From Bryoerythrophyllum caledonicum (Eukaryota; Streptophyta; Bryopsida; Pottiales; Pottiaceae): a stretch of 64,000 nt of DNA. Within the stretch, counting starts at the first letter, position 1, and the number at the start of each line of letters is the position of its first letter. This document shows positions 2,637 through 60,872 of this stretch, in pieces. The position numbers and the translations under genes are program-made. The stretch spans positions 39,413,198 through 39,477,197 of the forward strand of contig OZ020515.1 of the NCBI GenBank assembly GCA_963971425.1, given 5' to 3'. The notes under the pieces were generated by a model. It was given only the letters and a program-made list of their open reading frames with translations, did not search any database and was not told the origin of the DNA.

Positions 2637-3405
2637 GAAGAACTGATTCGAATTTCAATTGGGAACTTATAGTCAAAATAATGGTTCATTTTCTTCCCTA
2701 CGTTGAGTAGATCAGCAGACTTTGACTTTACTTTGTATCAATTTTTTGAATTGTACAAGGTCTAAATCTTTTACTATTGTCTTAAGCATGATGTTATTTC
2801 CCAACACACCAATTTTTAGAGGTAAAAAAGGGATGTAGCATATTCAAAACAAGTGTGCAAGGAGTGGAGGTTCAGAAATTGCCATTTAAGGTTTTTTTTT
2901 TCTTCTGAACTACGTATGTATTCGAATGATAATCCAAACTGTCAATAGGAAGGTTTTCACTACATATTGTTCTTGAAAAAATAAAAAGTGAAAAATATGA
3001 AGATCTCTAGGTTTTATGTAGAAAAGATTAATTTTTTTTCCCCCATCGCCCGACAATGTCTGAAAATGTTTGACTTGGAATTAAATGCCTTTTTACACTA
3101 AAGACAAGATTTTTTTTATATATCTAATGAAGGATATATTTTTTATATGTGTGAAAAATCTCAATGTCAATAGAAGCTTCTGTCAACAAATTTGGAGGTG
3201 CCCAAAGTCCCCACTTTTGGCTTTAAGTGGTACTAACTTTCAAACCACAAATCCAAAAAACAAAATAAAAGTACCTCCACAAAGCTCTTATTAGAGGCTA
3301 TCTTTTATAAAATTTTCAAATAAAAAGGATTTTTAATCGAATTGTAGGTACATGCTCAAAATCCAATTTGACCCTGGGGGGACGTTTGCTCCTGTAGGGG
3401 TTTAA
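2637..3405 (-). mobile_element. TTAA-family element, decayed copy
   Basis: The interior is the reverse complement of the element at 42203-43133. For example, the stretch around 3190-3260 (gtgcccaaagtccccactt and following) matches 42360-42430 inverted. The right end reads TGTAGGGGTTTAA, a decayed form of the CCTTTAGGGGTTAA end of this family. The left end is not clear. It carries no coding capacity. Confidence 0.6.
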
Positions 3406-11721: not shown

Positions 11722-11764
<43 letters not shown>

Positions 11765-12195: not shown

Positions 12196-12231
<36 letters not shown>

Positions 12232-41979: not shown

Positions 41980-42202
41980 GCTTGAATTTCTGGCTCTGGA
42001 CTCAACTCATGAGCTTGTGCAACTCAGCAAATCGCTCGCTCGCTCGCTCGCTCACTCAGACGATCAATCAATCAGTCTCTTGCCTGTGCAATTCTTCAAC
42101 CACACCATGGTCCCGGAATTGAGTGCGAATGCGGAGTGAGTTCCGATCGCTGACGAGTTTAGGGTTTAGCCATTCCACACGACCTTTCTCTCGTCCTTCA
42201 TG
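41980..42202 (-). promoter_or_regulatory. 5' leader and proximal promoter of the RRM gene
   Basis: On the minus strand this is an A/G-rich leader with a GAGC/CGAG microsatellite (plus strand GCTCGCTCGCTCGCTCGCTC near 42033). A TTS of the AAACCCTAA class (plus strand TTTAGGGTTTAG) lies near 42160. A TTAA-family element begins at about 42203, so only about 220 bp of native promoter separates the ATG from the transposon. Confidence 0.45.
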
Positions 42203-43133
42203 TTTCCCCTAAAGGACCAGAGTCTCCTTCGGGGGGATTTCTGATTTTGGGCAGGTTCCTAAAATTCGAAAAAAATTCCTTTTTCTCTGAAATTTTTATT
42301 CTAAATTTCCTCTGATAAGAGATTCGTGGACATATTTTTATTTTGTTTTTTGGATTTGTGGTTTGAAAGATAGTACCACTTAAAGCCAAAAGTGGGGACA
42401 CCGGGCACCTCCAAAATTTTTGACAAAAGTTTCTATTGACATTGAGATTTTTCACACACATAAAGAATATTTCCTTTTCTAGAAATTTTCCCAAAAAAAT
42501 CTCGTCTTCAGTGTAAACAGGCATTTTATTCCAAGTCAAACATTTTCACACATTGTCGGGCAACGGGGGAAAAAAACTTCATCTTTTCTACATAAAACCT
42601 AGAGATCTTCAGATTTTTCACTTTTTATTTTCTCAACAACAATATGTGGTGAAAACCTTCTTATTGACCGTTTGGATTATCATTTGAATACATACGTAGT
42701 TCACAAAAAAATAAAACGTGAAATGGCAATTTTTGAACTTCCACTCCTTGCACACTTGTTTTGAATATGCTACACCCCTTTTTTACCTCTAAAAATTGGT
42801 ATGTCGGGAAATAACATCATGCTTAAGACGACGGTAAGAGATTTAGACCTTGTACAATGCAAAGATTTGATACAAAGTGAAGTCAAAGTTTGCTAATCTA
42901 CTCAACACAGGGAAGAAAATGAACCATTGTTTTGAATTTAAACACTAAATTCTATCAATCCGTGCGATGGATTGGAACCAAAATTTTATGGCATGTTTAT
43001 ATAGAAGTCTATCTTAAGATCTTACGGTTGAAAATCCGAAATTCACTTTAAAATGTGATTTTCATGTCTCTTTGGCAGTGGCAGTTTTGGACTGGTTTTA
43101 GAGCGAAAGTGGTCGTGGTCCTTTAGGGGTTAA
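42203..43133 (+). mobile_element. TTAA-family element, long type, copy A1
   Basis: The left end is TTTCCCCTAAAGGACC and the right end is TGGTCCTTTAGGGGTTAA, an inverted repeat of about 14-16 bp with the left TTAA mutated. Length is about 930 bp. The interior has no intact ORF and is shared with copies near 2.6, 44.2, 46.3, 48.7, 53.5, 54.4 and 57.2 kb. TTAA flanks with C-rich tips suggest piggyBac- or Sola3-type mobilisation. Confidence 0.75.
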
Positions 43134-43601
43134 CCCTTGAACGTCACAAGCTACCGGTGGTGCCCACCGTATTCTACATGTACGGTGTCGTATTTCAAAT
43201 GTATGGCGTTGAAATGTACGGTGTCGTATTTCAACATGATAAGGTTCATGATTCCCCAATGAAAGATGTTAGTTGAAGATTCTTCAATCCAAAGGTGTAT
43301 GTCTTGCTAAACTATAATACATGTTTAGTGTTCCATAGAGTTAAATACGGTCTTGTATATAGGGTTCCCGACTAACGTTTAAGGGTGAACTCTTTAGCAA
43401 TTGTATGTTTAGTTCAGGCAAGTATTTATGTGTAGAATACAAAAAATACATTAAAGTTTAGCAAGACTTACACCTTTGGATTGAAGATTCTTCAACTTAC
43501 ATCTTTCATTTGGGAGTCATTTCAATATCTGAACCTTATCATGTTCATATATGGCACTATACATGTCCATCAATGGCACAATTTGACGTTTTACGGGTTA
43601 A
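43130..43601. mobile_element. TTAA-flanked foldback element with long arms
   Basis: The left end is TTAACCCTTGAACGTCA and the right end is TGACGTTTTACGGGTTAA, closely inverted. The arms are long: AGTTGAAGATTCTTCAATCC at about 43268-43290 recurs inverted near 43475-43495, and the similarity extends most of the way to the tips, leaving a central loop of about 80-100 bp. It shares its left TTAA with the right TTAA of copy A1. Non-coding. Confidence 0.75.
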
Positions 43602-44155
43602 GGTTAACCCCCCTGTGAGTGATAAGTTAAGCAATGTGCATATATAGAGAGAACAAATTATAATAGGTCTATTTTTAGTCATGTCTCATAGAAATACAAA
43701 TTCAAGTGTTTTCATATTTTTCCAATGAATTTTCAAAGTGCGCTGCCACGTTTAGCGAGTGGCCGCCAATAGATACCTCTGGAAAGCTTCGATCGTAAAT
43801 ACGGGATCCTTACTTATGGCAAACCATTATTTAGAGTTGAATGGGTGGTAATGGGATGGAAGTGAGTTGAATATACCCTAATTTCATAGGTTGTGGTTGG
43901 TTACCAAGGAGTGCCGTATCTTTATTTTTGAATGGAGGAGGTTTAACTATGAAAGAGATTTATAGATTTCATGGTAGAAGCCTTTTTTTGTATTGGATTG
44001 AACTATTTAGTCTTAGTAGGATGGTAGAGTTGTCACTTATGCAATGAATGTTTCTTTGTTCTATCATATAACATTTAAAATTATTTTAAATGGTTGAATA
44101 GCTTAATTTAGTGATTTTCTCCTTTAGCTCTTACAATGTTTAAGGTTTTTTTTTT
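43602..44155. other. AT-rich, no gene seen
   Basis: AT-rich non-coding DNA between two TTAA-family elements. Nothing recognisable. Confidence 0.4.
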
Positions 44156-45020
44156 TTTACCCCTAAAGGCCCAAGGCATTTTCACACCAAAAACACTTCA
44201 AAAATTCTTCCTTTAATGCAATGAGTGAGGATCAAAACAAAAACTTTTATTTCTACATCTAACCATAGGATCTGAATCAAGGCTTACTAAGTGGTGTCTT
44301 CACGAAATTTCATTAACTTTGATCGCACGGATTGAAAGATTATAGTGTTTGAAGTTAAGAAAACGGTTGATTTTTTCCCTTTGTTGAGTGGATCAGCACA
44401 CTTTAACTTCCGTCGATGTCAAATTTTTGCACTACACAAGGTCTAAGTTCATTACCATCATGTTAATCATGGTTCTACTTCCTTACATACCAATTTTTAG
44501 AGGTAGAAAGGGGGTGTAACATATTAAAAACAATTGTACAAGAAATGGAGGTTCAAAAATTGCCAATTCACATTTTAGTTTTTTTTGTGAACTAAACATG
44601 TCTTTGTATGAGAATCCAAATTGTCAATAAGAAGGTTTATACCACATCCTGTAGTAGAAAAAATAACATGAAAAAAATGAAAAACTCTAAGTTTTATGTG
44701 GAAAAGAAGAATTTTTTTGGTACCTTGCCCGATGATGTGTGAATGTGTGAAAATGTTTGACTTGGGTTGAAATGCTATTTTTCAATAAAGACAAGAAATG
44801 CTTTTTGACAATATGAAAGAAAATAATAGTAAGTGCTAGTATTGAAATTCTCACATTTGATAAAGTGTTATAGCAAAAGTTTTCGAAGTTGCCCGACCTG
44901 CCCGCTCTCCCCATTTGAAATTCAGAATCTTATAACTTTTTCAGTAAATATTGTCTCCTAAGGAACGTACTCAAACCTTCAAGAGTCCCTCAAGGGAACT
45001 CTTGGGCCTTTAGGGGTTAA
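44156..45020 (-). mobile_element. TTAA-family element, long type, copy A2
   Basis: The left end is CCCCTAAAGGCCCAAGG after a T-run (left TTAA decayed) and the right end is CTTGGGCCTTTAGGGGTTAA, a nearly perfect 16-17 bp inverted repeat. The length is about 865 bp. The interior is homologous to the other long copies, in inverted orientation relative to A1. Non-coding. Confidence 0.75.
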
Positions 45021-46250
45021 ATCTAGTTTCTTTGTTGAACTACAGTGAACAGTAACATTTGCAAGGACCATGTTTTCTATATCCTTTGAATTTATGAAAT
45101 ATTAAAAAAAAATTACTCAACGGAAGTTTTAGTAAGGTCATTTTGATTGATTGATTAATGATTCTCATGAAGTTTATTGATGAGTCAATAATCTAGTGAT
45201 TATATTCTATCATATGAGGTATCTAATTTGAAATCATATGGCATCTACCTTAATGGCCTTAAAATATAAAGCATTTTGTTTTGCTTACACGTAATTTATT
45301 TTGTGCCACGTTCAACTCTATTATCTTACTTTATGAAGACATCATGTGGAAATTATCTAAATCTTGAATTTCAATTATAGGTGCATGTAAAATGTGATTT
45401 ATTTGATAACCCTAAACAACTGAATTAAGCACAAATAATTAGTAGAAAGTAAGACATAAGTTGTCAAAGAAGTCTCACGACAACCATTATTATAACTGCA
45501 AGTTTCAATTAAAAAATAATGATCTATTGTTATCAAGAATCATTCGAGAATCTCATCTCAAGGTTAAATCATTATAATTACTTCATTACTTATTTCAAAT
45601 ATTATTGTGTATTCATTGGTGAGAAATGCACAACTTTTTAGTTTAATATGGATAAATATAATTTGTGTAGTACCACCAACTAAATCATTGTCATAATACC
45701 ATAGCACCATATCATGGATGCCCAAATGCAAAAAGTCTAAAATTTGTTCTTGGGAAACTATGACGGTGAAGAGAAGAACTTTGGTCTCCAAAGAATGTTG
45801 GTGTGAATGTAGTATTTATTTAGTCCACCACTGAATCTATAACCACATAAGAAAGGTACCAACAATCAGTTGTCTTCACTATCATTGCTTTTTTATTTGA
45901 TTTTTATTCTATCATTTTTTCTAGTAAGTTCGTAAAATATTGGATATTTTCTAGTCATCCTTTTTGTAGTAGGATTGACATAGACTGTTGAATTGCTATA
46001 GTGTTGATGTCTTTGAAGGTATCTATATTGGAGTTAGTTGAGTTTTAGATTATTTTTAAAAAAATCATGGATCATATGTGTACTACTAGTCATGCGCATG
46101 TTGTAATGACTATGAGGGGTCCACCTTCCATCCTCATGCAATAATGTCATTGACAAGCCGTTGGTATGTATCCATTTTGTTTCATTTGATTTAGGTGAGA
46201 ATTTGTCATTATAATACATAAATTCAATAAATTTAATAGAGAGGACTTGG
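45021..46250. other. AT-rich, no gene seen
   Basis: AT-rich non-coding DNA with short chance ORFs only. I see no repeat termini, RNA gene or coding pattern. Confidence 0.4.
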
Positions 46251-46857
46251 TTAACCCCTAAAGGACCAAGGCATTTTAGAGGGAAAAATCAATCCAAAAC
46301 TACCACTATCATAAGGAGGCATGAGAATCACGTTCTTGAGTAAACTTTTGCACTTTTAGCCGTATTACCTAAAGATAGACTTCTACATGAACATACCAGT
46401 TTTTTGTTGCAATCCACCGCACGGATTTAAAGACTATAGCGTTTGAAGTGCAAGAAAAAGTTAACTTTCACCCTTGCCCAACAATGTGTGAAAATGTTTG
46501 ACTTTGGTTAGTATGCTAATTTTCACAAAAGACAAGAACTTTTTTTTTGACGATATGAAATTAAATAATATTGTCTACCAATATTGAAAATCTCACATTC
46601 AATAGAGTATCCTAGCCTCATCCTAGCAAAAGTTTTTGGAGGTGCCCGACGTGCCCGCTCTCCCCCAAAGAAATTGAAAAACCCTATAACTTTTTCATTA
46701 AATGTTGTAAATAGAAAAAAATTGTTCTCACATTGATGTTTTAGTAACGTCCTTCTACAATAAAAATTTCAAAGAGTAATGTAAGAAATTGACATCATAA
46801 AAACCTAACCGAACCTTCAATTTGCAATTTTTGGGCACTTGGTCCATTAGGGGTTAA
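46251..46857 (-). mobile_element. TTAA-family element, copy A3, best-preserved ends
   Basis: The left end TTAACCCCTAAAGGACCAAG and the right end CTTGGTCCATTAGGGGTTAA are inverted repeats of 20 bp with one mismatch, including TTAA on both sides. The element is 607 bp and non-coding, shorter than its relatives through an internal deletion. It is the best reference copy for the family termini. Confidence 0.85.
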
Positions 46858-46930
46858 TGTGGTCTAGTGGCAGATTGTTGTACAATAGGCTCCAAACACA
46901 TGATGTGTTTGGTTCAAATCTAGCACCACA
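46858..46930 (+). other. tRNA-like or SINE-head sequence
   Basis: TGTGGT at the start pairs with ACCACA at the end, 73 bases apart. An A-box-like TGGTCTAGTGG and a B-box-like GGTTCAAATCT lie about 45 bases apart, as in a tRNA promoter. The D and T stems pair poorly and an AAACACA/TGTGTTT hairpin sits off position. It is more likely a decayed tRNA gene or tRNA-derived SINE head than a working tRNA. It begins one base after the TTAA of the element before it. Confidence 0.3.
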
Positions 46931-47276
46931 ATGGCATCTTTGGGTACTACATGTGCAATATAGTAGCTATGTGGGATTAATGTTTTATTTTTTAGGTTAT
47001 TGTTGAAGGTACCAGTCTTCAGGAGAATGGAGCATGGAGACTTGTTCAAAGATACAAGTAGTTTTCATAATTTTCAAACTACTTTATTGTGTCTTTTAAC
47101 AATCAAAGAGTGTATATGATGTTATTGGCATTCAAATTAGACATGAATCCAATTGTTTGGTTCTACAGTGTTACAAATGCATAAGGGTAAAGAAAAAAAA
47201 TAGGGAAAAAAATAAAACTTCAAAAATATATTGCCATGGTCAATTTTAAACATTTTTAGGCAATTTTAATTAAATT
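46931..47276. other. AT-rich, no gene seen
   Basis: Non-coding, AT-rich. It may include the body of a SINE following the tRNA-like head, but no tail or target duplication was found. Confidence 0.3.
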
Positions 47277-47504
47277 AACTACATTAAAGATCACATTTAG
47301 TGTATGTCACACTAATTGATTTATAAATGCTACAACTTTTTATTCTTGATGAATATTTTTACCAACTATATCTCTAATGATCCACCTCTTTGAGTAGTGT
47401 AGACAGTTGTGCTCATAGTAAAAATATTCATCAAGAGTAAAAAGTTATTGGATTTATAAATCAATTAGTGTGACATACACTAAATGTGATCTTTAGTGTA
47501 CTTC
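47277..47504. mobile_element. foldback MITE with TAGTGT ends, copy 1
   Basis: Arms of about 85 bp are inverted copies: AAAGATCACATTTAGTGTAT on the left and its complement before CTTTAGTGTACTT on the right. A loop of about 55 bp carries CCTCTTTGAGTAGTGTAGAC. Non-coding, 228 bp. Related copies lie at 48053-48272 and 55863-56080, with a half copy at 33185. Confidence 0.8.
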
Positions 47505-48052
47505 ACTTCTCAATGAGGGTCAGGCACTCTTTTCTGGTACAAAACTATTAAATATCCAAATGATAAGTGACAACCTTGCTATGGCACTGGTATGTCATTC
47601 CCTTATGAATGGCTGCATTTTTGTCCGTCACGCAACCTCCCCTCCTCACAAATCCATACCAATTCCCAAGGGTCACATTTAGCCCCAAAAAAAAAAAAAA
47701 AATCCCGAAATAGCTGTCCAAAATTTGCTGAATTTCCTTTTCAAGAGCATTACCAGATGAAACAACAAACTTGTTAAAAAAAATTTTTTGCTGAAAACTA
47801 TATAGGGATAGGCATTGGAGTGTGGATCCTGACCCTGAAGTACGGTATTAGACAACAGAAAGCAAACTTGTGATCAGAATGGGCAATCTGACAAACCAAC
47901 TTGAAAACTGCCCCAAAGCTGTTTGAAGTGAATGAAAACCTCATCAAAATTCTCTCTACAAGCACTAGAAACAGATGCGGGGGAAGAAAAGAGAAATGTG
48001 GATCCAGTAAAGGTTGTGAGTACAAACAATGTGGCACCCAATGTGCTGGAGC
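47505..48052. other. non-coding DNA between two foldback MITEs
   Basis: No gene can be supported. An A-run of 15 or more lies near 47688-47701. Confidence 0.4.
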
Positions 48053-48272
48053 AGTACATTTTGATGTTTTGTGTCATGGGCAGTTAATGACTTGAAAATG
48101 CTATAATTTTTCAATCTTGATGAATATTTTTACCGACCATGTCCGCTATGACCCCCCTCTTTGAGTAGCATAGATTGTTGTGTTCTTAGTAAAAATTGAT
48201 ATCAAAAGTAAAAACTTACAGCATTTACAAGTCATTTACTACCCATGACACTAAACATCAAAATCAATGTAG
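48053..48272. mobile_element. foldback MITE, copy 2
   Basis: Inverted arms (ATTTTGATGTTTTGTGTCAT left, ATGACACTAAACATCAAAAT right) with the same loop block as copy 1 (CCCTCTTTGAGTAGCATAGA). The arms are about 75-80 bp with more mismatches than copy 1. Non-coding. Confidence 0.75.
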
Positions 48273-48689
48273 CTGTGGATTCACGCATGGGACCGCTTCC
48301 AAGTCTTCTCCTCAATAATTGAGCATGGAGGGATCAAGCAAAAGATGGTTGGCACAGACTCCATGCCCCACAAGCACGTCCTCAAGTTGCAATTTCGGGG
48401 TTTGATTTTTCCATCATCCTTTTTGGAAGCTTGCTAGACTCTTCAAGGCGCGTCCTCCAGTGCTGATTCCCTAACAAACCTTACTCATTTCACCACAACC
48501 AAGAGAAGTGACACTGTACTCCAAAGTCGTGTTTGGCGCTTTAGAATCATAAAAATAACTTCTAAATGGAAAAAAAAAGTCCCCAGGTGGGCTTTTGCAA
48601 ATCTTGGGCACGTTCTCATGCTTGCAATTTATATTTGCAATTCTTGAAATCTTGTACTAAGATGCAAGAAGACAAGAGGTATGTGGGAG
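48273..48689. other. non-coding DNA
   Basis: Slightly higher GC than its flanks (48290-48540). No ORF or RNA gene can be supported. Confidence 0.35.
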
Positions 48690-49512
48690 TATGAATTTTA
48701 AATCTCCATAGACTAACAAGAAAAAAAGTTATGCCATCTTTAAGAAAGAATTGTCTAGTGCGGGCACATCGTGCAACTCCAATATTTTTTGCTAAGACAC
48801 TCTAGTAAATTTGAGATTATCAGTACTAGCAAGTACTAACATATATCCTTTCATGTTGTCAAAAAACATTTTGTGTCTTTAGTAAAAAAATGGATTTTAT
48901 CCAAGTCAAAGATTCTCACACATTGCCACACATTGCCACACATTGTCAGGCAAGGAACCAAATAAACTTCTTCTTTTCCACATAAAACTTTCAGATCTTC
49001 ATATTTTTCACTTTTTATTTTTTTCTATTACAAGATGTGGTGTAAACCTTCTTATTGACCATCTGGATTATCATTCTACATAGTATTTTGTTCCCAAAAA
49101 TTTAAAACATTAATTGGCACTTCTTGAACCTCCACTCCTTGCACAATTTTTTTGAATATGCTACACCACTTCTCTACCTTTACAAATTGGTGTACAAGGA
49201 GTTGATATCATGATGGACATGATGATATCAAATTTAGACCTTCTATAATGCAAACTTTGACACCAAGCAAAGTCAAAGTTTGTTGATCCACTCTAAGCAA
49301 GGATGAAAATGAACCAATTTTCTACTATAATCTTTCAATCCGTGTGGTCATAGTTGATGAACTTTTGTGAGTATGTAATTTATTAAGTTTTAAATGATAT
49401 CCGATGGTTAAAACTAGAAATAACTTTTGTTTTCCTTCCGCACTCATTGCACTAGAATTAACAAATTTAAATTGTTTTTGGTGTACAATTGTGAAGGAAA
49501 TTTAGGGGTTAA
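48690..49512 (+). mobile_element. TTAA-family element, long type, left end unclear
   Basis: The right end reads GAAATTTAGGGGTTAA. The interior is the inverted counterpart of copies A2 and A3 (GTGCGGGCACATCGTGCAAC, then the ACATTGTCAGGCAAGGAACC block). The left terminus is too diverged to place exactly. Non-coding. Confidence 0.6.
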
Positions 49513-50837
49513 TTACACCTAGATAAGTGTAGATCTCTGTAATATCTGGTGGAGCAAAGGCAGTCCCACAAGACCTTGTCTCAAGACACCAGACCCTATC
49601 TTGGAGCAAGACCATGTCGTTAGGCGATACCATGTTTTGGTGCAATACCCTATCCTAGCAACGGTAATTCACCTCAAGTATTTCATTTGACTAATTCATC
49701 ACACAAGATCCAACATGCAAATATGCGGGATTGCCAAACAAATATTATTTTATCATATATAGAGAAAGAGATGTTAACAAAATTAACATTTTTGTGAACT
49801 TGTATTTTCACATATCAAAACAAGTTTCTTTGAAAATACAAATTCTGGAATTCTAGGAATCTACTTAAAGACTTTTTCTGTTGCCGTACTAAACTCTTGG
49901 GTAAGGTATGACACACTCTTTGAATAAAGTCTCAGTTTGCATTAGCAACTATTTATGTTGAGAACTATTGTTAAGGTTTATTAACCACTACGACCTTTAT
50001 TTTCTTCCCATGCTCCTCTTTCTCAATCTCTTGAGTTCATTGGTTCTTCTAAACCAAATGAACTTCCTTGCTTCCTAACACGGCATCATTTGTGGCAATT
50101 ACCTAGAACTTGTTCTAATCTTCAAGTCACAACATCTTGAGCAATTGAGCCTAAGCCATCTTGTCCGTGGTTTTTGCTTGTGCACAATTCATTGCCTCCC
50201 GTTGCTTCAACCTTAATTGATCCTCTTTTGCAACCTTTGCTCCTCCCGGTCTTATCTATAATTGTGGGCCAACCTTTCCACCGCTCCCTTCACCAACCTC
50301 TACAAACATCCCACCCACAGAGCCATCTGCACTTCTACCTTGCTCCTCTATACTACATATATCCATATCTCCAACTTCGTGCCCACCACCAAACCCCCCC
50401 CCTCTACCGGTGCCTACCTCTTTGGTGTTTGAGATTTTGTTTGCGTTCAACTGCCAGCCTACCTTAGGTGGTCTTCCAACAAAAGTCAACAATGCTCATA
50501 AGCAAAGTTATTATCTTGTGAGACTTCGCCTATACAACTCGTGCGCTTGCTTCAAAACTTTTGCAGTGCTTAATTCATTCCTTTAGCATATTAAAGATAT
50601 GGAGAACGGCAAGATACAAATAATTACAAGGATTGTCCCACCAGAACTATGTTTTCTTTACCTTGATTTGTACATGTGTAAACAAATGGTATTCTAAAAA
50701 TTAAAAGAGGGGTGTATTATTAAAATTTTGCAGGAATTTACCTCGTATTTTTTTAATCATTGTTTTCAGGTAACAAATGAAGACAATTAAATACTGCTAT
50801 TCTGATTTCTACCACTACAAAAAAAATGTGATATGAA
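49513..50837. other. non-coding DNA, Pro-rich chance ORF
   Basis: Contains a 97-codon ORF at 50174-50467 rich in Pro, Leu and His. It is not supported by homology I can recognise. No repeat boundaries are clear. Confidence 0.35.
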
Positions 50838-52250
50838 ATAACATGGCCCAAGGACATATTATCCATGGTTCAAATGCTACAAAATTGCACACAAATCACA
50901 ACTCTCCATAAAATTAGAGCACTTGTCAACATAGAAGGAAATAAACAAGCAGATAAACTAGCTAAAGAAGGACTAAGTAAATCTCATAGAAATGCTAAAC
51001 ACCCACATGAACACGCCCACGCTACCCCATACTACCTCCAAAGAGAAAGTTGGTCTTCTATGGAAGAAACCCCGGATAAAGGCCCCATTAGATTTTTAGA
51101 TAAATACCTCAAAAACAAGATCTAATTAACAACCTTGATCTAATCTCATAAAATTTCCCTAACATAGATAAATGGACCGGAAATAACGACATTGGTAATG
51201 AACTCTCTACAAACTTTTTGAAAAATCCCACAATCACAAACTCACCAGAAACATGCATTATCAAATTTGGTACTTGATAATACATAGAAAATGCTCACAA
51301 ACAACTCTTCTTTGGTATAGAAAGATTTCCATCAAAAACATGCCCAATATGCGCATCCATGGACCCATACACATGGCTACATGTACTCCTCAAATGCTAA
51401 AACCACCATATACACTTCCTAATCGTCAAAAGGCACAATAATGCGGTATGAGAAATCCAAAAACTAATAATATCCTCCGATAAATCACGATGCTTCATAC
51501 TTATGAACGCCGGTACCTTCAACAACAAACCACAAGAAAATACGTTCCCGCCATGGCTATTTCCATGCACATGTGAAACCAAAAGATGTCATTTTAATGC
51601 CAGATTCAAACCAAAAATACTATGCGTCAAAGGACTACCATATAAAGACCCCCCACCGGACCACATCAATTCAAACCTTACCATCCAATTTATCGAATTC
51701 AAATATTGTAATGATAGATTTTCCTCATAAGCAATAGAAAACAAAATTAATAAATACCAACCACTTATCAACGACATTACAGCCCTTGGATGGAAAGTTG
51801 ACCCCCTTATTGCCATTACCGCCGGAGCTAAAGCTACTACCTTTATCTCCTCTATGAAAAGTCTCGAAAAAACATTCAATATCCCCACTCATTCAATTAA
51901 AAATACATTCACAAAAATTAACACCATTGCTATCCAACATGTAATGTCCATACTTCTACATAAATGCAAACTATAAAATAACCAACCCCTTCCAGATTCA
52001 CATGATACACCTTAAAACCTCTCAAAACACACAATCAATCTCAATAGATCAATTCTTGGAATGGAGCCTTGTGGCTCTACTTTGTCCTTGGTCTCTTATT
52101 ACTGGTTACTGGCTACCCGTCCCTGGTTACATAGTGTCTACCCTTGAAAGGGGGGAGTAGTTCCATACTGCTAAACCTATGTCTGGTGGACATGGATTTC
52201 GTGGTGGAACAAACGGACACTTTATTCACTTCGGCCCCCTTCAAGGACCA
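50838..52250 (+). mobile_element. LINE retrotransposon fragment, ORF2 3' end
   Basis: Broken frames encode the C-terminal part of a plant LINE ORF2. An RNase H end reads IEGNKQADKLAKEG at about 50932-50973 and includes the conserved Asp. A zinc-knuckle-like TCPICASMD...H follows at about 51339. Then comes a conserved tail, MNAGTFNNKPQENTFPPWL, CTCETKRCHFNARFKPKILC and IQFIEFKYCNDRFS, ending near 51975 in ILLHKCKL. Stops include a TAA at about 51729. The 3' untranslated part (ACATAGTGTCTACCCTTGAA, GAACAAACGGACACTTTATT) is shared with the copy ending near 60.87 kb. It is 5'-truncated, as is usual for LINEs. Confidence 0.8.
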
Positions 52251-53516
52251 AAGTTCTTTTTCTTTTGGAATGGGGATCAGAGAGTGTCTTGCAATAAATG
52301 GTATACCTTCAAATCTCTTTATTTAAAAACAATAATTTATGGTTTATGATTTTTATTTTAAAATGCTATTACATTTTATGAGGGTTCTTGGTTCAATTGC
52401 AAATTTGGCTACCAACAACCATTTTATTTCCATGAGAAGATCTTAGAAGAATTGATGGAGAACATTCAATTGGTAGATAGAGTCATTTTATATGTTGGTT
52501 TGCATGTGTTAGAATATTTTTTTCAATTGATTCAAAACAAATTTCAATTTTGATGTTTCACTTCAATTCTATTTTGTAATAGTTCTCAAAAGTAACATAC
52601 TATTACCGAAGGAAACGAAGATTAATATTATTATATTTTCTCTAATATCCATGGAATGTACTTAGACACAAGCTTAATAATCCTTAACCTCAAAACATTC
52701 TTTGCAATTTCACACCAAAAACACTTCAAAACTATTGCTTTTGTGAAATAAGTCAAGATAAAAACAAAATTTGAAATGGTATTGATTTCACTTGTGAATA
52801 AAAGCCAATAAACTTGTTCACAATGTGCTTCACGGTGCCCCACTTTGTCTCCAAAGATTGTTGCGGTCTCCCTCCGGCCGACCAATGCTCAGGATAGTAC
52901 TCCGCAATGCACTCCTAAAAAACTCCCGCTCTTTGTTGATTGGTTGATTGTCAACAATTCGACCTTGAGAAACATGTAACACAAACCTAAATAATTGTTC
53001 TTCGTCTTGTCTATTATAAACCTTGCTCTTGGTTCTGGTTTCTGCGGACCTCGATCCTTTTCAATCCTTCCTTCCACTCCACTTCTCCCGTTTCCTACCA
53101 TAGCTTTTCACTCACAAAATTGACAGTACCCTAACAAAAACAAAAGAGAAAAAACTTGATAAAAAAGAGCTAAAGAGTGTCTATGAGTGAGGGAGATGAG
53201 AGAAAAAGGTGAGGAAGGCGAACAAGATGAGCTCGAGAGATTTTTAGAAATGTGGAAGATATTATAATAAGCTAGAATTTTTGTTGACCAAGCAGACATG
53301 TCCTGGCCAACATAGCCCAGGCATGGGAGGCCGGCATGGGTATGACCGACATCGCACCCAATGCAGACTGTTATGCGGTACGAGACCCCCCCGCCCACCA
53401 GGACACACCTACGGCTGTTGGAGTGTCCCTCTTCTGTGGGTAGGGATAGAGTTTTTGTCTTCATCCCGCTTCTTAGTGCCATAACTCTCCAAATAGTAAT
53501 GCCATGCATGCACTTC
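52251..53516. other. non-coding DNA
   Basis: AT-rich in the left half and more GC-balanced in the right half. Small ORFs at 52889-53101 and 53108-53509 on the minus strand match nothing I recognise. Confidence 0.35.
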
Positions 53517-54377
53517 TAAATTCCTAAAGGATCATTTATGCCTATAGGGTACAAATTGATTTTGTGCAAGTTCCTAAAAATTCATTTTGAAAACAACTTC
53601 TTGAAGTTTTTAGCGAGAATAGGAATACAAGTTAAGTTTGAAGAGATTTTTGTTTTCTTTTTTTGGACTTATTGTGAAAAAAATATGGTGCTTAATATAT
53701 AAATAGGTTGGATCTTTGGGTAGCTGGGCAGGATACTACAGAGAAGAATAGTGCTATTGTAGAGTTGACAATTGCACTTTGTTTAAGCTCATAGCAATGA
53801 AAGAATGTTCTTAGAAACCGTCACTGTTTTCACTTAAAAACACATAGAAATTAAGGATTTTATTTTTTTGAATTTTTTTCCTTCTATTGTCAGAAGAAGT
53901 CATGGTAATTCTATTCACCGTTTGGATTTTAGATCCAAAAATTATTTATTTATTTTAAAAAAAAATCCTAAGTAAAGGGCCACTTTTTATACCCCTAATT
54001 GTTGTAGGTCCATTTTTCTTATTGTAAGCAGCTCTACTACTTGTGATTTTTGGCATGCTATGACCTAACACAAGGTAGACAATAGATCCATTGAGTGTGC
54101 AGTGAAAAAATATGCCATTGTCTTGAATCAAAGTACGTTGGCCCTATTCGAGCACGGTGAAAAAAAAACAACTTTGCACTCTTCAAATCCATGGATCTTA
54201 CAATCCACATGGTCAAAGCTTACAAAAAATTTGCGTGTCTTCTTATAGTAGATAGCTTAAAGATCCTACGGTTGAAAATAGTACATGTTTATTTGAATTA
54301 GTCTAATAATATCTCATCTCAAAGTGGCGGTTTTGGAGTGGTGTTAGTGAAGCATAAGGCACGGTCTTAGGGGTTAA
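53517..54377 (+). mobile_element. TTAA-family element, long type, copy A5a
   Basis: The left end is decayed (TAAATTCCTAAAGGATCA) and the right end is GCACGGTCTTAGGGGTTAA. The right third matches copy A1 (ATCCTACGGTTGAAAAT, GGCGGTTTTGGAGTGGT). It shares its right TTAA at 54374 with the next element. Non-coding. Confidence 0.6.
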
Positions 54378-55233
54378 CCCTTTAATGCCAATTTTTTTTT
54401 GAAACTCTTATACTAGATTGTCCCTGATAAGAGCTCCATGGAGATATTTTTATTATTATTTTTGGATTCATGGTTTGAAAGTTAGTACCACTCAAAGTTA
54501 GAAATGGGGACTCCGGGCAGCTCTAAAATTTTGCTAGAAGTCTCTATTGACATTGAGATTTTCCATACATGTAGAGAATATCACGTTCTTTGAAGATGTC
54601 AAAAAAATTTCTTGTCTGTAGTGTAAAACAACATTCTAACACTTTTATATACATTTTGGGCAAGCGGGGAAAAAAACTTCATCTTTTTTACATAAAACCT
54701 AGAGATCTTCATATTTTTCACTTTTTGTTTTTTCTACAACAATGTGCAGTGTAAACCTTCTTATTGACCGTTAAATTATCATTCTAAAACTTATCAAATT
54801 CTCAAAAAAATAAATTGTGAATTGACAATTTTGAACCTCTATTCCTTGCACACTTGTTTTGAATATGCTACACCCCTTCTCTACCTCTAAAAATTGTTGT
54901 ATATGGAAGTAACATCATGCTCAACACAATGGGAAAAGATTTAGGCCTTGTGTGTAGTGCAAAAATTTATTATCAAGTGAAGTCAAAGTCTGCTGATAAA
55001 CTCAACGGAGGGAAAAAATGAACCATTTTCTTGACTTCAAACACTATAATCTTTCAATCCGTGCGGTCAAAGTGTATGAAATTTTGTGAGTACGTTACTT
55101 AGTAGGTCTTTATGGAGATCCTACGGTCATAAGGATAAATATAAGGTTTGGTTTCCTTCCTTACTCATTGCACGAGAATCAACAATTTTGAAGTGTTTTT
55201 GGTGTGAAATCGTCATGGGCTTTTTGGGGTTAA
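54374..55233 (+). mobile_element. TTAA-family element, long type, copy A5b
   Basis: The left end is TTAACCCTTTAATGCC and the right end is GGGCTTTTTGGGGTTAA, with decayed inner bases. The interior (CCCTGATAAGAGCTCCATGG, TTAGTACCACTCAAAG) follows copy A1 in the same orientation. It shares TTAA with both neighbours. Non-coding. Confidence 0.7.
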
Positions 55234-55455
55234 AGGAAAAATATAGACCATGACTTAGAGGTGGAGAAAGATGAGCATCTATTGAGACCATTGCCACGAC
55301 AATCAGTGCAAGCATTGGATACAGTGATTTCTATGAAATGAGTTTGTAGATTTTTTGTGCTAAAATGTACCCATTACATAGATGTTATTCCCCATGATCT
55401 AAAAAACTAGTAGATTCTCACAGGCCAGAAAATCTCATCAGCCTTAAAGGGTTAA
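55230..55455. mobile_element. TTAA-flanked MITE, short family, copy 3
   Basis: It starts at the right TTAA of the previous element and ends with GCCTTAAAGGGTTAA. The interior (GAGCATCTATTGAGACCATT, ACAGTGATTTCTATGAA) matches copies at 32022 and 32433. It is 226 bp, shortened near the left end. Non-coding. Confidence 0.65.
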
Positions 55456-55862
55456 AGGTGATGGCTTTTGAACTGTGGCCTCTATTGTGAAGTCCATGGA
55501 CACCAAGTTGTCTATCAAAAGAAAAACTACCTACGATTCAAGAGCCACAACTAGCGCGCCAGAAACTTTATTTCTGAGATTTAGTACCATATCCTTTATT
55601 TCAAATATTACTCATACACCTCCAACCCAATTATTCATTCACATATTAATGGCTTTCTAAAGAAAAATCATATTATTCCATCCAGATCATTTGAGGACTC
55701 CACAAACACTTTATTCCCATGTTGTTTGAGATGCTGCCTGTGATGATGCAGGAGCTGGTGTCAATTGATGGTATTCCTTGACCATCTACGTTGTCATGAA
55801 AGGTCAGCACCTGAGGGTCATTGCAATACTTTGGATAAAGTTCGTCTTCTGGACATGGCTCA
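55456..55862. other. non-coding DNA
   Basis: No gene can be supported. Only short chance ORFs occur. Confidence 0.35.
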
Positions 55863-56080
55863 GTACACTAGAATTCATGATTAGTGTTAACCACACTAAT
55901 TGATTCATACTGCTATAAGTATTTACTTGTTATAATTATCTTTACCAACTATAGATCCCCCCTTCATATAGTATACATAGTAGTGCTCTTAGAAATAATC
56001 TTCATCAAAAGTTAAACAATGTATAGCATTTCCAAATCAATTAGTGGGGTTACTAATAATATCAATTTCAGTTTAGTAGA
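55863..56080. mobile_element. foldback MITE with TAGTGT ends, copy 3
   Basis: The left arm begins GTACACTAGAATTCATGATT and the right arm ends AATTTCAGTTTAGTAG. Inner arms share CACTAATTGATT/AATCAATTAGTG with copy 1, and the loop contains CCCCCTTCATATAGTATACA. Decayed and non-coding. Confidence 0.65.
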
Positions 56081-56145
56081 ACAAACAAACACTTTATCCA
56101 CGCCATATTCTTTTCAAAGACCTTGTTCTTTACATAAAGCTCAAA
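56081..56145 (+). mobile_element. LINE 3' tail fragment
   Basis: AACAAACAAACACTTTATCC followed by CAAAGACCTTGTTCTTT matches the 3' untranslated end of the LINE fragment at 52190-52260. Only the last part is present, directly after the foldback MITE. Confidence 0.5.
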
Positions 56146-56752
56146 GCAATTGAAGTGCGAGGATGAGCAATTTCACACCCCCCAGGTACTCTTCCTCTGC
56201 ACAAATAATATCAGCATCACCATGCTGTCCGGCATGCAGAATTCGAAGCTCTTGGATAAACAGCATGCAGCAGCTTTAAGACTCTACACCTTTCTGTCAT
56301 ATTCTGCCATAATCACTTACAAGCTTCAATGACAACTCCTCTAATTTTGAGCCTGTTTGGAGAAGTTGCAGCATTTATTTGTTCTTAGAAGGTTCTCAAG
56401 CACAATCGTAAACATTAAAAACACTAAGACAACAGCATTGAGTTAGCGAACAAGACACAGTGCCATAGTCACTTGTAAGTGGGCAAGAAAGAATCTGATG
56501 CCGAGGTGCTGAATACAATGTATGCAAAAGCTTCACATGCCCAGATAACATGTAATGTTGGTGCTAATTATGCAGAGGAAGAACAAATGGGGCATTTGCA
56601 AGTGAAATTGCTCTATCTGTAGCATTCCTGAGATGATGACTACAGATGATGACTGGAATACTACAGATGACCACAGATGATGGAGATGATGACTAGATTT
56701 TTACAGATAGACCTGAGATGACTGTTAAATAGGCCTGTGCACATGCCGCAAA
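56146..56752. other. non-coding DNA with GATGATGACTACAGATGA words
   Basis: No gene can be supported. Short imperfect repeats of CAGATGATGACTGGAATACTA type lie at 56630-56720. Confidence 0.35.
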
Positions 56753-56756
56753 CGAG

Positions 56757-56826
56757 GAGCGTGCGACGTTGTATGTGAGCGTGCGACGTTGAATGTGAGC
56801 GTGCAATGTTGTACGTGAGCGTGCGG
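56757..56826 (+). repeat. 20-bp tandem repeat, GAGCGTGCGACGTTGTATGT
   Basis: Three and a half units differ by one to three bases each. GC-rich island in AT-rich DNA. Confidence 0.75.
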
Positions 56827-56988
56827 AAACACCGGTTTGCTATGGCCAGCCCTCATGGCCCAGAGCTAATATTTCGTGCGACCTGAGCCCTCACGAATTG
56901 TTTACCTCACGTTTTTACCCTATGGTTAATCACCCAAGCCCAAAATTAGACATGTCAAGAAGTCACCACGCAAGTCTACTCGTCTCTG

Positions 56989-56993
<5 letters not shown>

Positions 56994-57034
<41 letters not shown>
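56994..57034 (+). repeat. (CT)n microsatellite
   Basis: About 20 uninterrupted CT dinucleotides, flanked by TCTC-rich sequence on both sides. Confidence 0.9.
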
Positions 57035-57036
<2 letters not shown>

Positions 57037-57155
57037 GGGCACCGTCTCTCTCCTTTTGTCTCTCTCCACAGAGCTTGTTTCCAGCTTCCCTTAAATGAGT
57101 TAGGGTTTTGATTTTTTGGGTGATATTACGGAAGTTCCTAAGGGGGGTTGATAGC

Positions 57156-58108
57156 TTAAACCCCTAAGGTACCGTGACAGTTTTACACCAAAAACACTTC
57201 AAACTAAATGGATTCTAGTGCAACGAATAAAGAAGGTAACAAAAATTTTGATTTTTAGTTCTGACCGTAGGATCTCAATAAAGGCTTATTAAGTAATACA
57301 TGTTCTAAATTTCATAAACTTTGACCGCACAGATTGAAAGATTATAGTGTTTGAAGTCAAGCAAGTGGTTGATTTTCTTCCCTGCGTTTAGTGGATCAGC
57401 AGACTTTGACTTCAGTTGGTGTCAAAAAAATTCACTATAAAAGGTCTAAATCTATAACCATCTTGTTAAGCATGATGTTAGCTCCTTACACACCAATTTT
57501 TAGAGGTAGAGACCGGGTGTAGCATATTCAAAACAAGTGTGCAATGAGTGGAGGCTCGAAATTTGTTAATTCACACTTTATCTTTTTTTGAACTTAATAT
57601 GTTTTTGATTGATAATCCGAATGGTTAATACAAAGGTTTACATTATGTATTGATGTGGAAAAAATAAAAAGTGAAAAATATGAAGATCTCAAGGTTTTAT
57701 GTGGAAAAGAAGAAGTTTTTTTGGTACCTTGCCCAACAATGAGTGACAATGTGTGAAAATGTTTTACTTGGGTTGGTATGCTATTCTTCACTAAAGACAA
57801 AAAAAAAAAATTGACAACATGAAGGGAAATAATAGTACTTGCCAATACTGAAAATCTCACTTTCAATAGAGTGTCCTATCAAAAGTTTTTGGAGGTGCCC
57901 GAGGTGCCCGCCCTCCCCATTTAAAATTCAAAACCCTATAACTTTTTCATCAAATGTCCAATTTAGGAAAAAATTGTTTTCCCACTAAGGTCTTGGTAAT
58001 GTCTTTCTATAATCAAAATTTCAAAGAAGAATGTTGGAAATTGACACCATAGGAACGTGACCGAACTTTTAAAAGCCATTTTTGGACACTTGGTACCTTA
58101 GGGGTTAA
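57156..58108 (-). mobile_element. TTAA-family element, long type, copy A4
   Basis: The left end is TTAAACCCCTAAGGTACC and the right end is TGGTACCTTAGGGGTTAA, a strong inverted repeat with one extra A on the left. About 950 bp and non-coding. The orientation is as in A2 and A3. The final A of the right TTAA is also the A of the ATG that opens the Myb/SANT-like ORF. Confidence 0.8.
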
Positions 58109-58884
58109 TGCTTGATGAAGGGGGTGATAGTTCTCAAGGGACTCATGGTATTTCAAATTTGAAGAGGGAATGGACAAAGCGGATTGTGAGGTTTCTTGTG
58201 AACTTGTGTAAAGAAAAATATTGGAAGTACAATCGCAAGCCCTTCAAGAAAGCAAATTGGGAGTCATTTGCAAACCACCTGAACACACAATTTCTAGAGG
58301 AGCCTCAAAGAACCTGGCAATAAATGCGTGACAAATGGAAGAAGATGAAATCAATGTACCAGGAGGAGGAGGTGAAGCAACAAGAGATTGAAGCTTCGAC
58401 GTCCACTTGGACACCATGGTATGAAGTTTTTGATAACATTTTTGGTGGTATTGCAAAAATCAATGGTGTGCCTCATGGTGTTGATCAAGGAGTTCGTTTC
58501 CAGCATTCTGAGGCAGTTGTTTTGAATGATGATGATGAGGGCACTTTGCCTACCCCTCCTCATCATCCCTCTGCTCCTAATACTCCTTCTTCACAGTCTC
58601 CACGCAGTGAGGCGGTTAACCAACCGGGGTGTGAAGAACAAGGGAATTGAAATGCAGGGAAAATGAAGAGGAAATTGGCTATGGGAGAGGAATCCATTGT
58701 CTTTGCCATTAATAATTTCTCCAAGGGTATTCTAGAGGTGGAGAAGATGAGATTGCAACTCATAGAGAAAATGTTAGATAATGAGAGAGAAGGTAGGGAG
58801 ATGTTGAGGAAAGGGCAACTACAAATGGCGGCTTTATTTGCTAAAGTGTTGAAAGCCAAGGACTCTTCCATGAGTTCTAAATAG
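58108..58884 (+). pseudogene. Myb/SANT-like (trihelix) protein, two in-frame stops
   Basis: A single frame of 258 codons is interrupted by TAA at 58321-58323 (after RTWQ, where Gln is likely) and TGA at 58648-58650 (after EEQGN). Residues about 15-110 form a Myb/SANT-like DNA-binding region: LKREWTKRIVRFLVNLC, W-x-S-F...LN, then MRDKWKKMKSMYQEEE. The conserved WTPWYEVFDNIFGG block follows, then a Ser/Pro-rich linker (PTPPHHPSAPNTPSS) and a C-terminal coiled coil (EKMRLQLIEKMLDNEREGREM). This layout is known from plant trihelix-type factors and from the Myb-like partner protein of PIF/Harbinger transposons. The ATG falls exactly on the edge of a TTAA-family element, so the original 5' end may be lost. 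It is probably inactive. Confidence 0.7.
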
Positions 58885-60131
58885 GTTTTGCATCTTCAAT
58901 GTTGTTAATTTATTGGGATTGAGGCCATTGGAATGTTAATTCCAATCTTGTATCGAATTTTTTTGGATTTGGTTTGGATTTGTTTGCATTTGTTCCAAAT
59001 TCCATAACATTAAATAAAAGACTTTTTTTTCAATGAATCCATGCATAAGTGTCTTTGAATTTAAATACCTTCCAAGCGCTTGATTTGTAACTCAAGGTGT
59101 TGCTCATAGCCATAGAGAGCACAACTTGAGCACAAAAAGAGGGCTCCATATTGATTGAACTCGAAATGTGCCACTCAAAACCTATAGAAAGGGAAAAGCT
59201 TAAAAGCCTTACAATAAACACAAAATGGAAGTCCAAAAAAATGATGAAACCCTCTCTACAACATGTACTACCATTTACAAAAAAAAACAAACAAAAAAAA
59301 CAAGTAAACATAGCAAGAAAAAAACCACAAAGTTCAAGCTCTCCATAGCTCTCTCAAGCTTCTCCAAGCTCCCCCAAGCGCCTCCAAAAGTTGCTCCCAG
59401 TTCTTGAATTCCGCACACAAGAGATAGAAAGAGAATTCTACCTTGGAGGACCCAAAAACAAGCTCGAAAAGTGAACATGGTTGTAAAAATTGGATGCCCT
59501 GCTGGAAGAGGGTGGGGGCTCGCCCTGAGAAATAGGACGTCCAACCCAGCCCGCATGTGTGCGGGTCTAATGTAATATCTATAGCCATGGATTCACAATG
59601 GTCATATAGACAACTTGTTTCTTCAATTTCACACTAAAATTTATAAAATGTATTATTCCTATATTTAACCCATATAAATCTTTGGTATTTTTTCATTTTT
59701 TCTTGCGAAGAAATCAATGTTATAATGATTTTGTAACAAGGAAACCTATGAAAATTAATATAAGCTAGAAACATACACTAAAAACCAAGTTTTTCCACCT
59801 ACCCGTAACGTACAATGAAAATTCTTATGGTGGATAAAAATCATCCATGTCTTTTATATTAATAGAAAATAGTATCTCATGGTAATATGTATTAAACTTG
59901 CATTTGTGAAAAATTTCCGTTCTAGTTATTTTTAAATGATCAGATTTGGAGTTAAAAGTTGAATTTATGATGCATTTTAACCATTAAAAGTTTAATGGTT
60001 AAGATTATCTTCATGGTTTTAACCAAAAAAAATTGGTTAAAAAAGTCAAGTGTTCAATTATGTTATATGAATCCATTTCTACTACATAAATTCAAAGATG
60101 GCCCAAACTAAATCCAAAAATCCTTAGGTAT
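58885..60131. other. AT-rich, no gene seen
   Basis: Probably the 3' flank of the Myb/SANT-like relic, then AT-rich DNA. A minus-strand ORF at 59275-59556 is hydrophobic and unrecognised. No RNA gene seen. Confidence 0.4.
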
Positions 60132-60343
60132 TTAAACCCCTAATGTATTGTGATAGTTTCACAACAAAAACATTTCAAAACTGTTGGATTTCAGTGCAAT
60201 GTATAATGAAGGAAAAAAAAATCGTTTATTCCTGGTTTTGATCGTAGGATCTCTATTAAGACTTATTGAGTAAGATGCTCACAAAATTCTATAAACTTTG
60301 ACCGCGCAGATTCAAAGATAGTAGTTTTTGAAGTCAAACACTA
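60132..60343 (-). mobile_element. TTAA-family element, truncated copy A6
   Basis: The left end TTAAACCCCTAATGTATTG and the following sequence (GTTTCACAACAAAAACATTT, CTTTGACCGCGCAGATTCAA) match the first 200 bp of copy A4. The copy stops where LINE sequence begins, so the LINE probably inserted into it or replaced the rest. Confidence 0.65.
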
Positions 60344-60872
60344 CTATTGAGAAACAATTGAAAACAAAATGAATAAATACCAACCCCTTACTGATGACAT
60401 TATAGCCTTCGGATTGATAGTAGACCCCCTTATTGTAATCACAGCCGGCGCTTGGGCCACCACCTTTATCCCATCCATAAAAATCCTTGAAGATACCTTT
60501 GAAATCCCCATCAAAAAAATTTCACACACTTTCAATAACATTAACACCATTGCTATACAACATGCTATGTCCATCCTTCTACACAAACGCAAAATTGAAA
60601 ACAATCAAGCCGTCCCCGATATACAAGACCCTCCATAGCATTATCGTTTGCTTACTTAAACTTTAAAAACCTCTCCTCCTCTTTTTGTCCCCTCTCCCTT
60701 TATTAACTCTTTGGATATAGTTGGTTATTATTGTACTTTGGTTACTTGTCACATAGTGTCTATCCTCGAGAGGGGGAAGTAGTTCCATACTACTAATTGC
60801 TTGTCTGGTGGGCATGGTCTTAGTGCTGGAACGAAAAGACACTTTATTCATGTCAGTCTCCTTCTTCTTCTT
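60344..60872 (+). mobile_element. LINE fragment, second copy (ORF2 tail and 3' end)
   Basis: The open frame 60369-60638 encodes NKYQPLTDDIIAFG, ITAGAWATTFIPSIKILEDTFEIP and INTIAIQHAMSILLHKRKIENNQ, matching the C-terminal tail of the LINE at 51.75-51.97 kb and ending at a stop near 60638. The 3' untranslated part (CACATAGTGTCTATCCTCGA, AAAGACACTTTATTCATGTC) also matches. The 3' end runs directly into the CTT-rich array. Strongly 5'-truncated. Confidence 0.8.

What the first reader, a model, noticed from the sequence alone, without database searches (positions are those of the whole stretch)
42203..60343. A TTAA-bounded transposon family, piggyBac- or Sola3-like in style, abundant in a plant window
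At least eight long copies (ends TTAACCCCTAAAGG...CCTTTAGGGGTTAA) lie near 2.6, 42.2, 44.2, 46.3, 48.7, 53.5, 54.4 and 57.2 kb, plus a truncated one at 60.1 kb. In copy A3 the 20-bp ends match with one mismatch. TTAA flanks with C-rich tips are the signature of piggyBac, and Sola3 also uses TTAA. PiggyBac-type elements are, to my knowledge, rarely described in land plants. All copies here are non-autonomous, so a source transposase should exist elsewhere in the genome.
Basis: partly seen in the sequence, partly recalled or inferred. Interest (0 to 1): 0.8.

Follow-up and report, generated by a model that had tools for sequence, protein, structure and literature searches.

The report
Moss piggyBac transposons and their MITEs
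The window holds worn, gene-less copies of a cut-and-paste transposon that inserts at TTAA, and the same plant genome, most likely a moss, carries longer copies with the same kind of ends that encode a piggyBac transposase, a superfamily known mainly from animals and rarely documented in land plants.

Summary
Nine window copies or fragments are clearly one family (68.7-92.3% over the stretches that align); a tenth (e0) is a distant member. Genome-wide, TTAACCCCTAAAGG (up to 1 mismatch) occurs 21,920 times, against 135 for the reversed pattern. Six of 24 elements tested had a paralogous empty site with a single TTAA or a one-base variant. The piggyBac transposase model PF13843 gave 120 matches in this genome, best E 6.2e-81, on at least 13 large contigs. 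Six elements of 4.9-7.6 kb with TTAA plus CCC(C/T)TAA ends surround such genes. In the two proteins aligned to the solved piggyBac structure, the D268, D346 and D447 columns are D. L053 (7.6 kb) shares about 255-277 bp of its left end with window copies a and c (about 71%), and 164 bp near its right end with a (65%). Five other copies of the L046 family are 96.7-99.8% identical to it over the transposase frame. LEAFY in the assembly has residues that I recall as moss-type. Activity and origin are untested. A new member of a known kind in an unusual host.

The parts
42202..43133 (-). copy a, about 0.93 kb non-coding element; right (+) end CCTTTAGGGGTTAA intact, left flank GTTT instead of TTAA
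44156..45020 (+). copy b, 0.86 kb; TTTA-CCCCTAAAGG ... CCTTTAGGGG-TTAA
46251..46857 (+). copy c, 0.61 kb, internally deleted; TTAA on both sides; a paralogous empty site lies in this window
48601..49512 (-). copy d, one end intact (TTAACCCCTAAA on the minus strand at 49512); other end lost, boundary between 48601 and 48757 uncertain
51518..51819 (-). paralogous empty site of copy c; the single TTGA (minus strand; TCAA at 51666-51669 on plus) aligns with the TTAA of c
52684..52770 (+). fragment i, left end only (TTAACCTCAAAACATT)
53517..54377 (-). e0, distant member of the family; minus-strand 5' end TTAACCCCTAAGACC at 54377, other end decayed (TAAATTCCTAAAGG)
   Evidence: no hit in self-BLAST
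54374..55233 (-). copy e, shares the junction TTAA with e0; lacks about its last 80 bp there; other end CTTTTTGGGGTTAA
57156..58108 (+). copy f, 0.95 kb; TTAA-A-CCCCTAAGGTACC ... GGTACCTTAGGGG-TTAA; 93% identical to an internal block of the coding element in L046; holds the unoccupied form of the L046 insertion site (TTAA at 57466-57469)
60132..60340 (+). copy g, left 0.2 kb only
2667..3405 (+). copy h, right end present (GGGG-T-TTAA), left end lost

Best explanation
The window copies are old, non-coding (MITE-like) members of a piggyBac superfamily transposon lineage in a plant, most likely moss, genome. Coding elements of about 5-7.6 kb elsewhere in the genome make a DDD transposase that recognises C-rich inverted ends plus subterminal sequence, cuts the element out at its TTAA borders and inserts it at a new TTAA, so that each copy is flanked by TTAA on both sides. 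The 0.6-0.95 kb window elements keep the ends and lack the gene, so they would have been moved in trans. SHOWN: the end structure, duplication of TTAA judged from paralogous empty sites, transposase genes inside elements with such ends, conserved catalytic residues, and shared terminal sequence between coding and non-coding elements. INFERRED: cut-and-paste chemistry, trans-mobilisation, and recent transposition (five copies 96.7-99.8% identical to L046 over the transposase frame).
For: (1) 10,929 + 10,991 ends genome-wide against a control of 70 + 65. (2) Of 28 loci chosen because one end matched exactly, 16 held a recognisable second end; they are 12 distinct elements, and that second end was bordered by TTAA in 11 of 12 and TTGA in 1 of 12, while the next base outward varies (one pair, L031, is 1370 bp apart and may not be one element). 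The other 12 loci had no partner end in the stretch held. (3) Of 24 elements tested against all sequence then held (21, L050, L052 and L053), 6 had a paralogous empty site: TTAA for L010, L015, L008 and L046; TTGA and TTTA for window copy c; TTCA for L047. (4) PF13843: 120 matches, best E 6.2e-81, 0 of 14 control genomes. (5) L046, L045, L044, L048 and L053 proteins hit PF13843 with E 4e-71 to 2e-81. L046 and L053 match piggyBac 6x67 with E 1.4e-28 and 3.2e-24, with D at the D268, D346 and D447 columns; six Cys and one His near the C terminus are invariant in four aligned proteins. (6) L046: 6555 bp, an open stretch of 813 codons, sits at a TTAA inside a copy of the window family. (7) L053: 7557 bp, an open stretch of 1059 codons; its left 255-277 bp match window copies a and c at about 71% from the first base, and near its right end 164 bp match a (65%), 165 bp h (68%) and 125 bp e (74%) in the same polarity.
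Against: Empty sites are paralogous repeats, not the same locus in another individual; some carry TTGA, TTTA or TTCA, two further window repeats aligned to the L008 site read CATA, two aligned to the L015 site have a 7-base gap beside TTGA, and the L046 alignments have a 3-base gap within about 8 bases right of the TTAA. Eighteen of 24 elements had no empty site in the sequence held. A whole-genome empty-site search for L053 did not complete. Window copies are only about 65-80% similar to coding elements near the ends, so which transposase moved them is not settled; for copy c the right-end match to L053 is 22 bp at E 0.03. The two ends of L046 agree at only 9 of the first 12 bases, and its stretch holds 200 bases that read N. 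Of ten stretches around transposase genes, L049 and L051 gave no end pair and L050 and L052 only weak ones. f, g and h have an extra base between TTAA and CCCC. Nothing here tests expression or excision.
Confidence: 0.93

Rival explanations
1. Sola3-type transposon: also TTAA target duplications, with a different DDE transposase.
Against: The transposase inside elements with these ends is PF13843/piggyBac. No Sola profile was searched, so an additional Sola3 element elsewhere is not excluded.
Confidence: 0.02
2. Kolobok superfamily: TTAA duplications, transposase with a C/DxxH motif.
For: Shares TTAA-specific 4-bp duplications (PMC9587614, passages seen).
Against: Kolobok termini are 5'-RR..YY-3' (same passage); here they are 5'-CC..GG-3', the opposite. 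The transposase found is piggyBac.
Confidence: 0.01
3. PIF/Harbinger (Tourist-like, TTA/TAA) or Tc1/mariner (TA) MITEs whose neighbouring bases only look like TTAA.
For: Copy f alone also reads as TAA-ACCCC...GGGGT-TAA. An empty site cannot separate TA, TAA and TTAA if the outer T and A are always present.
Against: Second ends carry the full TTAA in 11 of 12 elements while the base outside varies, and the linked transposase is piggyBac. No Harbinger or mariner profile was searched genome-wide.
Confidence: 0.02
4. The transposase genes are contamination (insect, fungus) in the assembly, and the window family is moved by something else.
For: Some matches lie on short contigs (C162, C384, C621, C645, C749, C854). 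Some published piggyBac surveys centre on animals.
Against: Matches also lie at megabase coordinates on C1-C4, C6-C12, C14 and C15. L046, on C3, is inserted inside a copy of the window's own repeat, and L053, on C8, shares terminal sequence with window copies. A LEAFY gene is in the same assembly, on C7, where PF13843 matches also lie.
Confidence: 0.02

Closest known systems
piggyBac (Trichoplusia ni) and piggyBat, solved transposases 6x67/6x68 and 9c0f
   Same: TTAA target, CCC-tipped ends, DDD transposase with matching catalytic columns, C-terminal Cys-rich region
   Different: Elements of about 4.9-7.6 kb with open stretches of 813 (L046) and 1059 (L053) codons, against 594 residues for piggyBac; single-sequence matches are remote (E 1.5e-24 to 1.4e-28 for L046, 2.1e-22 to 3.2e-24 for L053); host is a plant
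MITEs assigned to PiggyBac in angiosperms (PMC10004981, one passage seen)
   Same: Short, non-coding, grouped by TIR/TSD
   Different: Here coding piggyBac elements sharing terminal sequence are shown in the same genome; the passage describes grouping of angiosperm MITEs by TIR, TSD and remaining internal sequence
PpTc1/PpTc2, Tc1-like elements of the moss Physcomitrella patens (PMC4054914, passages seen)
   Same: A transposon group better known from animals and fungi found with intact copies in a moss
   Different: Different superfamily (DD34E)
Kolobok (PMC9587614, passages seen)
   Same: TTAA duplication
   Different: Opposite terminal rule (RR..YY) and different transposase

Membership tests
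piggyBac superfamily | TTAA target site, duplicated on insertion | tested here: met
   Second ends TTAA in 11 of 12 elements; paralogous empty sites with one TTAA or a one-base variant for 6 of 24 elements
piggyBac superfamily | Short TIRs (12-19 bp per PMC10175614, passage seen) with C-rich tips (recalled) | tested here: met
   First 12 bases of the two ends agree at 12, 12, 11, 11 and 11 positions in L053, L045, L048, L047 and L044, but only 9 in L046; tips CCCCTAAA or CCCTTAA
piggyBac superfamily | DDE_Tnp_1_7 transposase with the DDD triad of piggyBac | tested here: met
   PF13843 E 4e-71 to 2e-81 in 5 of 5 proteins scanned that hold the domain; D at all three columns in the two aligned, L046 and L053
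piggyBac superfamily | C-terminal Cys-rich domain | tested here: met
   C774, C777, C787, C790, C796, C801, H806 invariant in four aligned proteins; judged from sequence only, no domain model matched
piggyBac superfamily | Precise, footprint-free excision | not testable with these tools
   Needs excision assays or re-sequenced individuals
Window MITEs as relatives of the coding elements | Both ends shared with a coding element in the same polarity | tested here: met
   Copy a: L053 left 257 columns at 71%, right 164 at 65%; copy e: left 51 at 76%, right 125 at 74%; copy f: L046 left 36 at 81%, right 173 at 67%. Copy c: left 282 columns at 71%, right only 22 bp at E 0.03. Not shown for d, g, h, i, which lack one end, nor for e0
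Kolobok | 5'-RR..YY-3' termini | tested here: not met
   Termini are CC..GG; rule from PMC9587614
PIF/Harbinger | 3-bp TTA/TAA duplication | tested here: not met
   All four bases of TTAA constant at 11 of 12 second ends
Sola3 | Sola transposase | not tested
   No Sola profile was searched; the coding elements encode piggyBac
Host is a moss | LEAFY DNA-binding domain with D312/C345 (key recalled, Sayou et al. 2014, not read) | tested here: met
   L054 reads NKPKMRDYVHCYALH ... GAWCQACYYP; residue numbering and its taxonomic meaning are recalled

The most novel reading that the evidence does not exclude
A moss lineage acquired several piggyBac families, perhaps horizontally from animals, fungi or algae, and one or more are still mobile. 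They have seeded on the order of ten thousand MITEs, making piggyBac a major DNA transposon of a land plant genome.
Probability: 0.4. Interest if true: 0.75.

Novelty: new member of a known kind. Interest (0 to 1): 0.6.

Why it matters
piggyBac is used as a tool in plants but comes from a moth (PMC10905368, abstract start seen). [quoted passage not shown] two other papers say without detail in the passages seen that it has been found in plants (PMC10140906; PMC10813416). A land plant genome with over a hundred coding matches and over twenty thousand ends would put a firm, sequence-level case behind this, offer native plant piggyBac enzymes for study, and raise a testable question about horizontal transfer into bryophytes.

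Tried and rejected
Viral and prokaryote collections: a 17-base pattern gave 5 viral contigs whose similarity to the family is short (17-30 columns), and a 23-letter pattern gave nothing in prokaryote genomes. A scan for relatives of the transposase in viral contigs confirmed none of 47 pattern matches. TA and 3-bp duplication models were considered on window data, where copy f is ambiguous, and set aside after the second-end counts. The frame next to copy f (58111-58884, two stops, Myb-like to my eye, recalled) gave no Pfam match at E 0.1 in two of its three stop-free pieces; the third was not searched. The L046 right end was first paired wrongly at 8168 and corrected to 8687. In one search my cut dropped one flank base of copy c, which shows there as a one-base gap; with the cut made rightly the site is ungapped. 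No structure prediction was run, and no transposase tree was built, for want of reference sequences.

Literature: the eight searches showed only their top rows (8 to 20 of 8 to 1,420 papers); among the rows listed I saw none describing coding piggyBac elements in a moss. Abstract starts and selected passages were seen, no whole text. A fern genome table lists PiggyBac at 1,230 copies and 0.00% (PMC6890710, passage seen). A paper on Physcomitrella transposons shows no count for piggyBac in its listing row (PMC7466625; passages seen).
Full report
Observation. The window carries nine copies or fragments of one repeat family that self-BLAST ties together and a tenth, e0, that does not appear in those searches and matches only weakly (70% over 125 columns to L032, short collinear pieces to copy a). 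Identity among the nine is 68.7-92.3% in 29 pairs, mostly 74-80%, so these are old. Members with both ends are about 0.86-0.95 kb, with one internally deleted copy of 0.61 kb (c). The end motif TTAACCCCTAAAGG at up to 2 mismatches occurs 10 times in the window against 0.47 expected; nine of these are ends of the copies. In the whole genome (437 Mb, 894 contigs; the window is C2:39413198-39477197) it occurs 10,929 + 10,991 times at up to 1 mismatch, against 70 + 65 for the reversed pattern. If most elements have two such ends this means about ten thousand elements; that step is inference.

Target site. The four bases beside the C-rich tip were examined at ends that had not been used to pick the locus. 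Of 28 loci picked by one exact end (L006-L033), 16 held a recognisable partner end. They are 12 distinct elements, because L022, L011, L023 and L024 repeat others. The partner end carries TTAA in 11 of 12 and TTGA in 1 of 12 (L008), and the base further out varies. The L031 pair is 1370 bp apart and may not be one element. Twelve loci had no partner in the stretch held.

Empty sites. I joined the flanks of 21 elements (16 short, 5 coding) and compared them with everything held, and later added L050, L052 and L053. Six of 24 had a paralogous unoccupied site. The L010 element sits in a tandem repeat whose other units are empty with one TTAA, ungapped. L015 is empty in L016 (TTAA, ungapped); in two other loci the alignment has a 7-base gap beside TTGA. 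L008 is empty at window 55.86-55.95 kb (TTAA, ungapped near the junction), although two further window repeats read CATA there. Copy c is empty at window 51.52-51.82 kb (TTGA, ungapped) and in L019 (TTTA). L046 is empty in many copies of the window family, with TTAA in most of those printed and a 3-base gap within about 8 bases to its right. L047 is empty in L008 (TTCA, ungapped there). Eighteen of 24 had no empty site in the sequence held. All of these are paralogous, not allelic, sites.

Source transposase. PF13843 (DDE_Tnp_1_7, the piggyBac transposase domain) gave 120 matches with best E 6.2e-81; 116 of 305 candidates were scored, so this is a lower bound. The 14 control genomes gave 0, but they gave 0 for LEAFY too, so they say nothing about plants. 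No listed match lies in the window. TTAA-bounded inverted ends enclose the gene in six of ten: L044 (5062 bp), L045 (4933), L047 (4942), L048 (5549), L046 (6555) and L053 (7557). The first 12 bases of their two ends agree at 11, 12, 11, 11, 9 and 12 positions; the L046 borders rest on the nested insertion rather than on its ends. L050 and L052 gave weak pairs (9 of 12 bases); L049 and L051 gave none. In L048, L045 and L047 the reading frame is split over more than one open stretch.

Protein evidence. Seven open stretches were scanned and one; the five that hold the catalytic region (L044, L045, L046, L048, L053) all hit PF13843, the three upstream stretches hit nothing. L046 and L053 align to the solved piggyBac transposase with E 1.4e-28 and 3.2e-24; the residues aligned with D268, D346 and D447 are D in both (triad from PMC7351741, passages seen). 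A profile of four proteins matches 6x67 at 2.4e-46 and piggyBat at 9.7e-41.

Link between window copies and coding elements. L046 is inserted at a TTAA inside a copy of the window family, and holds an internal block (5917-6775) 93% identical to window copy f without its ends. Its own ends resemble window copies d, a and f on the left (75-84% over 36-56 columns) and f on the right (67% over 173). L053 is closer for copies a and c: left 255-277 bp at about 71%, collinear from the first base. Near its right end it matches a (164 columns, 65%), h (165, 68%) and e (125, 74%); c shares only about 22 bp at E 0.03 there, and b and f about the terminal 23 bp. The simplest reading is that the window elements are deletion derivatives of, or share ancestry with, these piggyBac lineages.

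Age. Five other copies of the L046 family (L034, L036, L038, L039, L040) are 96.7-99.8% identical to it over the transposase frame (L037 is the same locus as L046), which suggests recent spread, in contrast to the old window copies. L034 has one stop inside its match.

Host. The assembly has a LEAFY gene (best E 1.3e-27; six weaker matches) whose DNA-binding domain reads NKPKMRDYVHCYALH and GAWCQACYYP. From recall, D312 and C345 are the moss type. The window has a glycosyltransferase family 8 gene and a CACTA-type transposase with DUF4218, in keeping with a plant.

Conclusion. The piggyBac reading is supported by ends, target and enzyme. Kolobok fails on its terminal rule; Harbinger and mariner are disfavoured by the target; Sola3 is not needed but was not searched. 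What remains inferred is activity, which transposase moved which MITE, and how the superfamily came to this plant. In print, passages seen describe piggyBac in plants as occasional (PMC12732532), state its presence in plants without detail (PMC10140906; PMC10813416), or assign angiosperm MITEs to it (PMC10004981). The rows listed by my eight searches held no description of coding piggyBac elements in a moss; the library is open-access only and the lists were capped, so an earlier report is possible. Interest is set at 0.60, a little below my first figure, because of those plant statements; confidence at 0.93, because L046's own ends agree poorly.

Noticed in passing
60858-62988: An 18-bp tandem repeat (CTCCTTCTTCTTCTTCTG, 118 copies, 99% matches), open in several frames.
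   Followed up: no
11635-12233: A 599-bp fragment of eukaryotic large-subunit rRNA embedded in the window, minus strand.
   Followed up: no
4230-8270: CACTA/EnSpm-type element remains: Transposase_21 with a DUF4218 frame and a sub-threshold DUF4216 match.
   Followed up: partly
58111-58884: A frame with two stops beside copy f, Myb-like to my eye (recalled), with no Pfam match in two of its three pieces.
   Followed up: partly
46858-47132 and 51393-51615: Repeat right of copy c begins with tRNA-like boxes (GTGGTCTAGTGG ... GGTTCAAATC, recalled motifs), possibly a tRNA-derived repeat; ARAGORN called no tRNA in the window.
   Followed up: no
L009/L022, L010/L023, L011/L024 (C1 0.31-0.43 Mb and 1.37-1.49 Mb): Loci about 1.06 Mb apart on C1 are 98.6-99.6% identical over 2.6-3.0 kb, and L010 and L011 are inverted copies of each other (2093 bp at 100%): large duplications or assembly artefacts.
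   Followed up: partly
27179-28567: Long His-rich open frame of 462 codons.
   Followed up: no
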